Source: Loxodes magnus
Taxonomy: Eukaryota > Ciliophora > Karyorelictea > Loxodida > Loxodidae
NCBI GenBank assembly: GCA_946699065.1
Contig: CAMPDV010000449.1
Coordinates: 124,001-188,000 of the forward strand
Length of the DNA: 64,000 nucleotides
Direction: 5' to 3'
Shown: positions 1 to 64,000 of the stretch, piece after piece
Layout: every line of letters begins with the position of its first letter
Position numbering within the stretch: the first letter of the stretch is position 1
Notes under the pieces: model-generated
Told to the model about the DNA's origin: nothing
What the model saw: only the letters and a program-made list of their open reading frames with translations
The model's database searches: none
Program-made: the position numbers and the translations under genes

Positions 1-3000
1 TATAGCCACAGATCATACATAACTAGTGTGACCACTCATGGTCTTACAGGTACCTGTCTTGACGTTCCATAGTCTCACCGTCTCATCAACACTTCCCGAT
101 ACGATGAACTCTGAATCACTGGATATAGCCACAGATAATACATAACTAGTGTGACCACTCATGGTCTTACAGGTACCTGTCTTGACGTCCCATAGTCTCA
201 CCGTCTCATCAACACTTCCCGATACGATGAACTCTGAATCACTGGATATAGTCACAGATAATACATAACTAGTGTGACCACTCATGGTCTTACAGGTACC
301 TGTCTTGACGTTCCATAGTCTCACCGTCTTATCATAACTTCCCGATACGATGAACTCTGAATCACTGGATATAGCCACAGATAATACATAACTAGTGTGA
401 CCACTCATGGTCTTACAGGTACCTGTCTTGACGTTCCATAGTCTCACCGTCTCATCAACACTTCCCGATACGATGAACTCTGAATCACTGGATATAGCCA
501 CAGATGATACATAACTAGTGTGACCACTCATGGTCTTACAGGTACCTGTCTTGACGTCCCATAGTCTCACCGTCTCATCAACACTTCCCGATACGATGAA
601 CTCTGAATCACTGGATATAGCCACAGATGATACATAACTAGTGTGACCACTCATGGTCTTACAGGTACCTGTCTTGACGTTCCATAGTCTCACTTTCTTA
701 TCATCACTTCCCGATACGATGAACTCTGAATCACTGGATATAGCCGCAGCATATACAGAATCTGTGTGACCACTCATGGTCTTACAGGTACCTGTCTTGA
801 CGTTCCATAGTCTCACTTTCTTATCTCTACTTCCCGATACGATGAACTCTGAATCACTGGAGATAGCCAAAGATAATACTGAATATGTGTGACCACTCAT
901 GGTCTTACAGGTACCTGTCTTGACGTTCCATAGTCTCACTTTCTTATCTCTACTTCCCGATACGATGAACTCTGAATCACTGGATATAGCCACAGATGAT
1001 ACATAACTAGTGTGACCACTCATGGTCTTACAGGTACCTGTCTTGACGTTCCATAGTCTCACCGTCTCATCAACACTTCCCGATACGATGAACTCTGAAT
1101 CACTGGATATAGCCACAGATAATACTGAATCTATGTGACCACTCATGGTCTTACAGGTACCTGTCTTGACGTTCCATAGTCTCACTTTCTCATCATCACT
1201 TCCCGATACAATGAACTCTGAATCACTGGATATAGCCACAGATAATACTGAATCTGTGTGACCACTCATGGTCTTACAGGTACCTGTCTTGACGTCCCAT
1301 AGTCTCACCGTCTCATCAACACTTCCCGATACGATGAACTCTGAATCACTGGATATAGCCACAGATAATACATAACTAGTGTGACCACTCATGGTCTTAC
1401 AGGTACCTGTCTTGACGTCCCATAGTCTCACCGTCTTATCTCTACTTCCCGATACGATGAAATCTGAATCACTGGATATAGCCACAGATAATACATAACT
1501 AGTGTGACCACTCATGGTCTTACAGGTACCTGTCTTGACGTTCCATAGTCTCACCGTCTTATCTCTACTTCCCGATACGATGAAATCTGAATCACTGGAT
1601 ATAGCCACAGATGATACATAACTAGTGTGACCACTCATGGTCTTACAGGTACCTGTCTTGACGTCCCATAGTCTCACCGTCTCATCAACACTTCCCGATA
1701 CGATGAACTCTGAATCACTGGATATAGTCACAGATAATACATAACTAGTGTGACCACTCATGGTCTTACAGGTACCTGTCTTGACGTCCCATAGTCTCAC
1801 CGTCTTATCTCTACTTCCCGATACGATGAAATCTGAATCACTGGATATAGCCACAGATAATACTGAATCTATGTGACCACTCATGGTCTTACAGGTACCT
1901 GTCTTGACGTTCCATAGTCTCACTTTCTCATCATCACTTCCCGATACAATGAACTCTGAATCACTGGATATAGCCACAGATAATACTGAATCTGTGTGAC
2001 CACTCATGGTCTTACAGGTACCTGTCTTGACGTCCCATAGTCTCACCGTCTCATCAACACTTCCCGATACGATGAACTCTGAATCACTGGATATAGCCAC
2101 AGATAATACATAACTAGTGTGACCACTCATGGTCTTACAGGTACCTGTCTTGACGTCCCATAGTCTCACCGTCTTATCTCTACTTCCCGATACGATGAAA
2201 TCTGAATCACTGGATATAGCCACAGATGATACATAACTAGTGTGACCACTCATGGTCTTACAGGTACCTGTCTTGACGTTCCATAGTCTCACCGTCTTAT
2301 CTCTACTTCCCGATACGATGAACTCTGAATCACTGGATATAGCCACAGATCATACATAACTAGTGTGACCACTCATGGTCTTACAGGTACCTGTCTTGAC
2401 GTTCCATAGTCTCACCGTCTCATCAACACTTCCCGATACGATGAACTCTGAATCACTGGATATAGCCACAGATGATACATAACTAGTGTGACCACTCATG
2501 GTCTTACAGGTACCTGTCTTGACGTTCCATAGTCTCACCGTCTTATCTCTACTTCCCGATACGATGAACTCTGAATCACTGGATATAGCCACAGATGATA
2601 CATAACTAGTGTGACCACTCATGGTCTTACAGGTACCTGTCTTGACGTTCCATAGTCTCACTTTCTTATCTCTACTTCCCGATACGATGAACTCTGAATC
2701 ACTGGATATAGCCACAGATGATACATAACTAGTGTGACCACTCATGGTCTTACAGGTACCTGTCTTGACGTCCCATAGTCTCACCGTCTCATCAACACTT
2801 CCCGATACGATGAACTCTGAATCACTGGATATAGTCACAGATAATACATAACTAGTGTGACCACTCATGGTCTTACAGGTACCTGTCTTGACGTCCCATA
2901 GTCTCACCGTCTTATCTCTACTTCCCGATACGATGAAATCTGAATCACTGGATATAGCCACAGATGATACATAACTAGTGTGACCACTCATGGTCTTACA

Positions 3001-6000
3001 GGTACCTGTCTTGACGTTCCATAGTCTCACCGTCTTATCTCTACTTCCCGATACGATGAACTCTGAATCACTGGATATAGCCACAGATCATACATAACTA
3101 GTGTGACCACTCATGGTCTTACAGGTACCTGTCTTGACGTTCCATAGTCTCACCGTCTCATCAACACTTCCCGATACGATGAACTCTGAATCACTGGATA
3201 TAGCCACAGATAATACATAACTAGTGTGACCACTCATGGTCTTACAGGTACCTGTCTTGACGTCCCATAGTCTCACCGTCTTATCTCTACTTCCCGATAC
3301 GATGAACTCTGAATCACTGGATATAGCCACAGATCATACATAACTAGTGTGACCACTCATGGTCTTACAGGTACCTGTCTTGACGTTCCATAGTCTCACC
3401 GTCTCATCAACACTTCCCGATACGATGAACTCTGAATCACTGGATATAGCCACAGATAATACATAACTAGTGTGACCACTCATGGTCTTACAGGTACCTG
3501 TCTTGACGTCCCATAGTCTCACCGTCTCATCAACACTTCCCGATACGATGAACTCTGAATCACTGGATATAGCCACAGATGATACATAACTAGTGTGACC
3601 ACTCATGGTCTTACAGGTACCTGTCTTGACGTCCCATAGTCTCACCGTCTCATCAACACTTCCCGATACGATGAACTCTGAATCACTGGATATAGTCACA
3701 GATAATACATAACTAGTGTGACCACTCATGGTCTTACAGGTACCTGTCTTGACGTCCCATAGTCTCACCGTCTTATCTCTACTTCCCGATACGATGAAAT
3801 CTGAATCACTGGATATAGCCACAGATGATACATAACTAGTGTGACCACTCATGGTCTTACAGGTACCTGTCTTGACGTTCCATAGTCTCACCGTCTTATC
3901 TCTACTTCCCGATACGATGAACTCTGAATCACTGGATATAGCCACAGATCATACATAACTAGTGTGACCACTCATGGTCTTACAGGTACCTGTCTTGACG
4001 TTCCATAGTCTCACCGTCTCATCAACACTTCCCGATACGATGAACTCTGAATCACTGGATATAGCCACAGATAATACATAACTAGTGTGACCACTCATGG
4101 TCTTACAGGTACCTGTCTTGACGTCCCATAGTCTCACCGTCTTATCTCTACTTCCCGATACGATGAACTCTGAATCACTGGATATAGCCACAGATCATAC
4201 ATAACTAGTGTGACCACTCATGGTCTTACAGGTACCTGTCTTGACGTTCCATAGTCTCACCGTCTCATCAACACTTCCCGATACGATGAACTCTGAATCA
4301 CTGGATATAGCCACAGATAATACATAACTAGTGTGACCACTCATGGTCTTACAGGTACCTGTCTTGACGTCCCATAGTCTCACCGTCTCATCAACACTTC
4401 CCGATACGATGAACTCTGAATCACTGGATATAGCCACAGATGATACATAACTAGTGTGACCACTCATGGTCTTACAGGTACCTGTCTTGACGTCCCATAG
4501 TCTCACCGTCTCATCAACACTTCCCGATACGATGAACTCTGAATCACTGGATATAGTCACAGATAATACATAACTAGTGTGACCACTCATGGTCTTACAG
4601 GTACCTGTCTTGACGTCCCATAGTCTCACCGTCTTATCTCTACTTCCCGATACGATGAAATCTGAATCACTGGATATAGCCACAGATGATACATAACTAG
4701 TGTGACCACTCATGGTCTTACAGGTACCTGTCTTGACGTTCCATAGTCTCACCGTCTTATCTCTACTTCCCGATACGATGAACTCTGAATCACTGGATAT
4801 AGCCACAGATCATACATAACTAGTGTGACCACTCATGGTCTTACAGGTACCTGTCTTGACGTTCCATAGTCTCACCGTCTCATCAACACTTCCCGATACG
4901 ATGAACTCTGAATCACTGGATATAGCCACAGATAATACATAACTAGTGTGACCACTCATGGTCTTACAGGTACCTGTCTTGACGTCCCATAGTCTCACCG
5001 TCTTATCTCTACTTCCCGATACGATGAACTCTGAATCACTGGATATAGCCACAGATCATACATAACTAGTGTGACCACTCATGGTCTTACAGGTACCTGT
5101 CTTGACGTTCCATAGTCTCACCGTCTCATCAACACTTCCCGATACGATGAACTCTGAATCACTGGATATAGCCACAGATAATACATAACTAGTGTGACCA
5201 CTCATGGTCTTACAGGTACCTGTCTTGACGTCCCATAGTCTCACCGTCTCATCAACACTTCCCGATACGATGAACTCTGAATCACTGGATATAGTCACAG
5301 ATAATACATAACTAGTGTGACCACTCATGGTCTTACAGGTACCTGTCTTGACGTTCCATAGTCTCACCGTCTTATCATAACTTCCCGATACGATGAACTC
5401 TGAATCACTGGATATAGCCACAGATAATACATAACTAGTGTGACCACTCATGGTCTTACAGGTACCTGTCTTGACGTTCCATAGTCTCACCGTCTTATCT
5501 ACACTTCCCGATACGATGAACTCTGAATCACTGGATATAGCCACAGATGATACATAACTAGTGTGACCACTCATGGTCTTACAGGTACCTGTCTTGACGT
5601 CCCATAGTCTCACTTTCTCATCATCACTTCCCGATACGATGAACTCTGAATCACTGGATATAGCCACAGATGATACATAACTAGTGTGACCACTCATGGT
5701 CTTACAGGTACCTGTCTTGACGTCCCATAGTCTCACCGTCTTATCTCTACTTCCCGATACGATGAAATCTGAATCACTGGATATAGCCACAGATAATACA
5801 TAACTAGTGTGACCACTCATGGTCTTACAGGTACCTGTCTTGACGTTCCATAGTCTCACCGTCTTATCTCTACTTCCCGATACGATGAAATCTGAATCAC
5901 TGGATATAGCCACAGATGATACATAACTAGTGTGACCACTCATGGTCTTACAGGTACCTGTCTTGACGTTCCATAGTCTCACCGTCTTATCTCTACTTCC

Positions 6001-63999: not shown

Positions 64000-64000
64000 A
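63001..64000 (-). repeat. Duplicate of 54391-55390 running off the window edge
   Basis: TGA codons 63112 and 63604 match 54502 and 54994 at an offset of 8610 bp (70 units). The intervening unit order is the same, including the run RDKT, RDKT, VDKK at the edge. The duplication continues beyond the window, so its size is unknown. Confidence 0.8.

What the first reader, a model, noticed from the sequence alone, without database searches (positions are those of the whole stretch)
1..64000. In-frame TGA confined to the three WD40 ligand-facing positions: probable UGA recoding (Trp favoured)
About 108 TGA codons break the single 64-kb frame, and 107 fall at R1-2 (HTDxV), R1 (SYVxSV) or D-1 (SGSxDK). 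Each unit has roughly ten other codons one base from a stop (GAG, TCG, GGA, AGA, TGG, AAG, TGT, TCA), about 5,000 sites in all, yet only three are nonsense and two of those are one duplicated event. No TAA occurs. Trp at each of the three places gives classic WD40 strings: HTDWV, YVWSV, SGSWDKT. Gly would also suit two of them. Random decay would not pick the binding face.
Basis: partly seen in the sequence, partly recalled or inferred. Interest (0 to 1): 0.95.

Follow-up and report, generated by a model that had tools for sequence, protein, structure and literature searches.

The report
Giant WD40 array, known UGA code
The in-frame TGA codons are ordinary tryptophan codons in the ciliate Loxodes, whose ambiguous genetic code is already published; what is surprising is that the window is a small piece of an enormous tandem expansion of the recognition blades of a large, hypervariable RING-like/WD40 gene family.

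Summary
One minus-strand frame spans the window as 520 WD40 units of 123 bp; it holds 108 TGA, 2 TAG and no TAA, and 107 TGA sit at unit codons 10, 12 and 28. UGA = Trp is right too, but not new: the genome is Loxodes, almost surely the L. magnus macronuclear assembly, whose published code (NCBI table 27) reads UAR as Gln and UGA as Trp or stop. In 30 kinase domains of this genome TGA aligns with Trp (72-fold enriched) and TAA/TAG with Gln; eRF1 has 20 in-frame UAR codons and ends in TGA.
The array spans about 250 kb of its contig (67 kb of that unread). One 36-bp piece of the unit occurs 377,806 times (about 46 Mb of units, 6.6% of the assembly). It is an amplified inner segment of compact RING-like/pentapeptide/seven-blade WD40 genes that vary at much the same sites as fungal non-self receptors. 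Unexplained: a blade-6 Trp is TGA 302 times and TGG once. The genome paper's main text does not mention WD40.

The parts
1..64000 (-). Piece of a WD40 tandem array: 520 units of 123 bp (41 aa, one of 117 bp), one open frame under UGA=Trp, UAR=Gln; the array runs on at both sides on contig C449 (from about 16.5 kb to the contig end at 271 kb in all stretches read)
40018..40878 (-). Seven consecutive units holding TGA at codons 10 (2), 12 (1) and 28 (2); read with TGA=Trp they are predicted to form a seven-bladed WD40 propeller
63604..63606 (-). TGA at unit codon 10, first in reading direction among the 109 in-frame stops listed
2350..2352 (-). TGA at unit codon 12, last in reading direction among the 109 listed
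46780..46782 (-). The only TGA of the window outside codons 10, 12, 28 (codon 1, Cys place)
61192..61194 (-). TAG at codon 35 (Trp place), Gln in this code; same haplotype as the next
50368..50370 (-). TAG at codon 35 (Trp place), Gln in this code
25018..25134 (-). The one unit of 117 bp (in-frame loss of 6 bp)

Best explanation
The window is part of a very long tandem expansion of WD40 blade-coding units in the karyorelict ciliate Loxodes (almost surely the L. magnus macronuclear assembly). The units come from the middle blades of a large gene family: RING-like N-terminus, a long Gln-rich region, a pentapeptide repeat, then a seven-bladed WD40 propeller. Blades 2 to 5 are nearly identical except at hypervariable sites (unit codons 9, 10, 12, 28, 30). 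TGA at codons 10, 12 and 28 is a sense codon for Trp, one letter of the alphabet at those sites, because the nuclear code reads UGA as Trp away from the mRNA end and UAR as Gln. Shown: the code in kinases, the gene architecture in ten genes, the shared units, the copy number. Inferred: unequal crossing-over and gene conversion amplified and shuffled the units; the array now drifts like a satellite; the compact genes are recognition proteins under diversifying selection, possibly ubiquitin ligases.
For: Identity: eRF1 95% identical to Loxodes striatus over its whole length; assembly 705,730,643 bases against 706 Mbp published. Code: kinases; eRF1 with 13 TAA and 7 TAG in frame, ending TGA; blade-6 Trp TGA in 10 of 10 genes read. 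Family: the N-terminus of the gene on this contig scores 98 places (itself included, 3125 first-look candidates), each covering at least 411 of 427 residues. Same variable codons in genes and array, with TGA at codons 12 (4 of 26) and 28 (2 of 26). On C1063 the units follow in one frame from blade 1 on, at least 15 of them, and are present again 20 and 50 kb further. The array's 3' edge shares an odd junction with the gene on the same contig. Copy number 377,806 exact 36-mers, reversed control 0. Neutral array: 16:48 against 15.9:48.1; 4 frameshifting and 2 in-frame unit-length changes in the stretches read.
Against: No transcript, peptide or ribosome data. The neutral test uses distinct variants outside codons that I set aside as variable (8-10, 12-15, 28, 30, 31) and could hide weak selection; the compact genes' framework (8 synonymous, 10 nonsynonymous) does not differ significantly from the array's (Fisher p = 0.14), so selection on the genes and drift in the array are not separated by this test. 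The window has no frameshift, and seven units fold well, so a translated giant protein is not excluded. The RING match is weak (PF13639 E = 0.0028, below its cut-off), and the output function is a guess. Array lengths may be misassembled (the authors say so of low-complexity repeats). Three of the ten compact genes (L016, L062, L063) have frameshifts in a unit.
Confidence: 0.8

Rival explanations
1. Standard code: the TGA codons are true stops and the array is a dead pseudogene whose stops sit at variable codons by chance of the codon alphabet.
For: The array shows neutral evolution; TGA is one step from TCA, TTA and AGA, common codons at those sites; TAA, TAG and TGA also occur at framework codons elsewhere on the contig.
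Against: Kinases and eRF1 of the same genome use TAA and TAG, and kinases TGA, as sense codons; compact genes of the family carry TGA at a structural Trp in 10 of 10.
Confidence: 0.02
2. The array is one functional giant gene: a beads-on-a-string protein of many seven-blade propellers, kept open by selection, with UGA read as Trp.
For: No stop under UGA=Trp, UAR=Gln and no frameshift in the 64 kb window; seven units give pLDDT 92.5, pTM 0.91; C1063 has an N-terminus next to an array, in frame from blade 1 on.
Against: Unit length is a multiple of three, so the frame holds by itself; the synonymous to nonsynonymous ratio is the neutral one; four units of 122 or 124 bp break the frame in the stretches of C449 read; the array's 3' end runs into AT-rich sequence without the conserved blades 6 and 7.
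Confidence: 0.12
3. The arrays are a silent archive: donor units for gene conversion into the compact genes, as silent cassettes feed antigen genes in trypanosomes and Borrelia (those comparisons are recalled).
For: Same unit family and mostly the same variable codons in genes and arrays; compact gene and array lie on one contig in the same orientation; three units of that gene differ from the nearest of 569 distinct array units by 2, 4 and 6 bases.
Against: None of those three units has an exact match in the array read; no population or time-series data; the arrays are far larger than an archive needs.
Confidence: 0.2
4. Assembly artefact: inflated tandem repeats, with the true arrays much shorter.
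For: The authors attribute the size difference of their two assemblies to misassembly of low-complexity repeats.
Against: The window holds 239 distinct units among 518 and only 4 repeated exact runs of 8 or more units, unlike looped assembly.
Confidence: 0.08

Closest known systems
Karyorelict nuclear code (NCBI translation table 27), Loxodes and Parduczia
   Same: UAR = Gln, UGA = Trp inside genes and stop at the end.
   Different: Nothing new in the code itself. New here: UGA is a letter of hypervariable WD40 sites and the nearly fixed codon of one conserved blade.
Fungal HNWD/NLR receptors with high internal conservation (het-d, het-e of Podospora; PMC12222747, passages)
   Same: Near-identical WD40 units held alike by recombination, with a few hypervariable codons. 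Shifted by two (my inference), the fungal positions 11, 12, 14, 30, 32 fall on our codons 9, 10, 12, 28, 30.
   Different: Fungal 10 falls on our codon 8, which changes residue only in the array, and fungal 39 on our codon 37, which does not vary. N-terminus here is RING-like plus pentapeptide, with no NACHT or HET hit; the array has thousands of units.
TRIM-type RING proteins (recalled)
   Same: RING-like finger, long middle region (coiled coil by eye, not tested), C-terminal recognition domain.
   Different: RING match below cut-off, no B-box hit, WD40 propeller, plus a pentapeptide repeat.
Highly repetitive propellers: 5yzv, 2ymu, designer WRAP-T (PDB)
   Same: Repetitive seven-bladed propellers; query TM-score 0.88-0.93, 40-44% identity.
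   Different: Single bacterial or designed propellers, not arrays of thousands of blades.

Membership tests
Karyorelict nuclear code (table 27) | UAA and UAG read as Gln | tested here: met
   TAA (n=117) and TAG (n=67) in 30 kinases: Gln the most enriched residue, 6.3- and 7.6-fold; 13 TAA + 7 TAG inside eRF1
Karyorelict nuclear code (table 27) | UGA read as Trp inside genes | tested here: met
   21 TGA in 30 kinases, Trp 72-fold enriched, 13 of 15 on Trp-majority columns
Karyorelict nuclear code (table 27) | UGA also the stop codon | tested here: met
   eRF1 frame ends at TGA after 436 residues, the length of the L. striatus protein; one gene only
Karyorelict nuclear code (table 27) | UGA depleted just before the true stop; short 3' UTR | not tested
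   published; no transcripts here
Karyorelict nuclear code (table 27) | tRNA able to read UGA | tested here: inconclusive
   ARAGORN on 36 loci found one tRNA (Phe) and no tRNA-Trp; too little sequence to judge
WD40 repeat family | WD40 profile and propeller fold | tested here: met
   PF00400 E = 3.5e-47 on the gene of this contig; seven array units pLDDT 92.5, PDB match E = 2.3e-30
Fungal HNWD (NLR) receptors | high internal conservation with hypervariable codons | tested here: met
   26 units of ten genes (of 40 collected; hybrid, frameshifted and off-motif units dropped): residue entropy 1.9-3.1 bits at codons 9, 10, 12, 28, 30, at most 0.98 elsewhere
Fungal HNWD (NLR) receptors | NACHT domain and HET effector | tested here: not met
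   Pfam scan of the N-terminal 360 residues of one gene: six weak hits, none of them NACHT or HET
TRIM proteins | RING finger | tested here: inconclusive
   zf-RING_2 E = 0.0028, 18.3 bits, cut-off 27.3
TRIM proteins | B-box | tested here: not met
   no B-box among the six Pfam hits of the N-terminus of one gene

The most novel reading that the evidence does not exclude
Loxodes carries a hypervariable RING-like/WD40 recognition repertoire of hundreds or more compact genes, fed by an archive of about 400,000 blade units that fills some 6.6% of the assembly. In these genes the ambiguous codon UGA is also used as a gate: blade 6 keeps UGA (302 to 1) although TGG means the same, so termination there would give a cut-off propeller and read-through the full receptor.
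Probability: 0.08. Interest if true: 0.93.

Novelty: new variant of a known kind. Interest (0 to 1): 0.6.

Why it matters
The code is known, so on recoding the window adds an example, not a discovery. The new part is the object. The published genome paper counts 231 Mbp of low-complexity tandem repeats in the macronuclear assembly and has no occurrence of WD40 in its main text; no held paper has both 'Loxodes' and 'WD40' (subscription papers, preprints and supplements were not searched). About 46 Mb of the assembly appears to be blade-coding sequence of one protein family, which looks like a ciliate counterpart of fungal non-self receptors. It would be a clear case of a protein domain turned into a satellite, and a natural test of how recombination makes recognition diversity. 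The blade-6 UGA, kept against a synonymous codon, offers a direct test of whether an ambiguous stop/sense codon can be used for regulation.

Tried and rejected
Standard-code pseudogene as full explanation: rejected by kinases and eRF1. The 88-bp repeat at the left end of contig C449 as a general chromosome-end satellite: not supported, 47 exact places on 16 contigs, many far from a contig start; C81 and C449 start at the same base. Selenocysteine: not pursued once UGA aligned with Trp. A search with a window ORF gave generic bacterial and fungal WD40 proteins in the 120 of 7973 rows shown. The N-terminus found no relative at E <= 1e-5 among 2997 candidates that share words and are of like length. 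Void scripts: minus-strand loci read in the wrong orientation; replaced; four mismatches split the units; replaced. In one search the blade-5 counts are unsafe, because the pattern can land in blade 6; I use the translations. The control for the blade-6 claim is half done: at the Asn-Asn-Trp of blade 7 the TGA form occurs 9 times, while the TGG form did not complete. The RF01960 (18S rRNA) search did not complete. A geometric test that codons 10, 12 and 28 face one side was not possible, as no coordinates were returned. Paper searches listed nothing on WD40 arrays in ciliates.
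Full report
What was checked. The window is one tandem array from end to end. On the minus strand 520 anchors lie 123 bp apart (one unit 117 bp) in one frame. That frame holds 108 TGA, 2 TAG and no TAA. By unit codon, TGA stands at 10 (51), 12 (40), 28 (16) and 1 (1), TAG at 35 (2).

How much the pattern proves. The TGA copies are not independent. In 518 units there are 239 distinct sequences, and nearly all TGA belong to three alleles: T-D-W-V-L (50 units), T-S-Y-V-W (38) and Trp at codon 28 (16). 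The first two are found with 12 and 8 right-hand types. On the wider contig the 1405 units of 123 bp read hold 336 TGA, 17 TAA and 9 TAG, including TGA at codon 26 (13) and at the Trp codon 35 (11). Outside ten codons that I set aside as variable, the distinct variants are 16 synonymous and 48 nonsynonymous, against 15.9 and 48.1 expected from the array's own substitution spectrum. So the framework shows no purifying selection, and stops would not be purged from it. TGA placement in this array could not by itself prove recoding.

The organism. The window is C449:124001-188000 of an assembly of 705,730,643 bases in 7843 contigs. Sequence outside the array is AT-rich (27% G+C in L016). The eRF1 gene (L022:1456-2766) encodes 436 residues with 13 TAA and 7 TAG in frame and ends in TGA. 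Its best match is Loxodes striatus eRF1, 95% identical over the whole length. The published L. magnus macronuclear assembly has 706 Mbp.

The code. PMC11441545 (abstract, sections 8 and 9, passages) states that karyorelicts including Loxodes use table 27: UGA is the only stop and also Trp. I tested it. A kinase search scored 136 domains of 5592 first-look candidates; 135 of 136 carry in-frame TAA, TAG or TGA. In the 30 best of these 136, 21 TGA align to columns with 59% Trp (72-fold enriched); of the 15 in columns with a majority residue, 13 fall on Trp, one on Glu and one on Ile. TAA (117) and TAG (67) are enriched 6.3- and 7.6-fold for Gln, more than for any other residue. The Trp of D-x-W-S-x-G is TGG 18, TGA 7, no motif 5. 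In Condylostoma the authors could not detect a tRNA-Trp with anticodon UCA (PMC4967479, passages); I could not scan this genome for tRNAs.

The gene family behind the array. L016, about 11 kb from the array on the same contig and strand, holds a gene with a weak RING-type finger (E = 0.0028, below cut-off), a long Gln-rich region, a pentapeptide repeat (E = 1e-11) and WD40 units of the array's family. Its 427-residue N-terminus has 3125 first-look candidates in the genome. The 98 scored places, the query's own included, each cover at least 411 of 427 residues at 50-88% identity; the query's own place also reads 88%, so these identities are understated by the reassigned codons. No relative was found in the protein database at E <= 1e-5. 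I read the WD40 part of nine more genes: C603, C1292, C769, C13, C292, C893, C2248, C27, C121. With L016 these ten show blade 1, three near-identical units (four in C292), a hybrid unit and a divergent blade 6; blade 7 was reached in seven of ten, the other stretches being too short. That makes seven blades, or eight in C292. L016, C13 and C292 carry frameshifts in a unit.

Hypervariable sites. I collected 40 units from these genes and kept 26 full ones; hybrid, frameshifted and off-motif units were dropped. Residue entropy is 1.9-3.1 bits at codons 9, 10, 12, 28 and 30; elsewhere it is at most 0.5 bits save codons 13 (0.98) and 36 (0.85). TGA stands at codon 12 in 4 and at codon 28 in 2 of 26, at codon 10 in none. 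Codons 12 and 28 are among the sites of the window's TGA. Trp by TGG occurs at codon 9 of the hybrid units of C603 and C893. The framework variants of the 26 units are 8 synonymous and 10 nonsynonymous, not significantly different from the array's 16 and 48 (p = 0.14). In fungal het-d and het-e the high dN/dS positions are 10, 11, 12, 14, 30, 32 and 39 (PMC12222747, passages). With a shift of two, which is my inference, 11, 12, 14, 30 and 32 fall on our five; 10 falls on codon 8, which changes residue only in the array, and 39 on codon 37, which does not vary in the genes.

Seven units of the window (40018-40878), read with TGA as Trp, are predicted to fold with pLDDT 92.5 and pTM 0.91 without an alignment, as 28 strands. 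The best PDB match is 5yzv_B (E = 2.3e-30, TM 0.93); designed seven-bladed WRAP-T propellers and WDR5 are among the next.

Extent. The array starts at about 16.5 kb of C449 and fills every stretch read from there to the contig end at 271 kb; 50001-84000 and 228001-261084 were not read. Its 3' edge has the same odd junction as the fourth unit of the L016 gene; then AT-rich sequence follows, without blades 6 and 7. On C1063 the stretch directly after an N-terminal match shows blade 1 and at least 15 units in one frame, and units are present 20 and 50 kb on; the frame between these places was not followed. One exact 36-bp piece of the unit occurs 377,806 times in the assembly (reversed control 0). 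At 123 bp each that is 46.5 Mb or 6.6%, if every copy marks a unit. Since 1290 of 1495 units read on C449, but only 6 of 16 on C1063, carry that exact piece, the true figure is likely higher; 54 Mb if all arrays were like C449.

An unexplained codon. The Trp of blade 6 is TGA in 10 of 10 genes read. Genome-wide the signature has 302 TGA and 1 TGG, while the 30 kinases have 21 TGA to 61 TGG. The codon just before it varies between ATA and ATC among the places shown. In the same genes the Trp of blade 5 is TGG in all ten by reading, and blade 7 has mostly TGG (6 to 1 and 7 to 0). Shared recent ancestry could explain this; selection for UGA is the bolder reading. The TGG count at the blade-7 control did not complete; its TGA form occurs 9 times.

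Position. The first 100 of 302 places of the blade-6 signature were listed. Of these, 39 of 59 minus-strand places lie within 40 kb of the contig start, and 28 of 40 plus-strand places with an interpolated contig length lie in the last tenth: many genes sit near contig ends and read outward. Contigs may simply break in nearby repeats. The authors report that Loxodes telomeres and telomerase eluded them.

Most likely working. The compact genes make recognition proteins whose propeller face is varied by diversifying selection and by exchange of near-identical units; the RING-like finger suggests ubiquitin transfer as output. All of this is inference. The same exchange sometimes runs away and leaves long arrays that drift. 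In such an array UGA is a Trp codon if it is ever read. The finding about UGA is thus correct and already known; the array and its family are the new part.

Noticed in passing
Loxodes genome, blade-6 signature; example in L016 just above 2812-3147 (-): Structural Trp of blade 6 is TGA 302 times and TGG once, although both mean Trp and the 30 kinases read prefer TGG (61 to 21).
   Followed up: partly
First 100 of 302 places of the blade-6 signature: Many compact genes lie near contig ends and read outward; the authors of the genome paper could not find Loxodes telomeres or telomerase.
   Followed up: partly
Contig C1503 (L001-L008); also C119, C9, C620, C1832, C272, C6957: Other WD40 arrays with matches spaced by multiples of 126 bp; some with in-frame TGA. 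Only C1503 pieces were read; their unit sequence differs from the window's.
   Followed up: no
L022:1456-2766 (+): The eRF1 stretch at the TASNIKS place reads RAQNIKS and that at YxCxxxF reads FLCENTF (motif names recalled); a second match lies about 35 kb away on the same contig.
   Followed up: no
L016:1-219: Contig C449 starts inside an 88-bp tandem repeat; contig C81 starts at the same base of the same repeat.
   Followed up: yes
L016 about 7200-9900 (+) and L055 (-): Endonuclease- and reverse-transcriptase-like translations (by eye) between the compact gene and the array; no search made.
   Followed up: no
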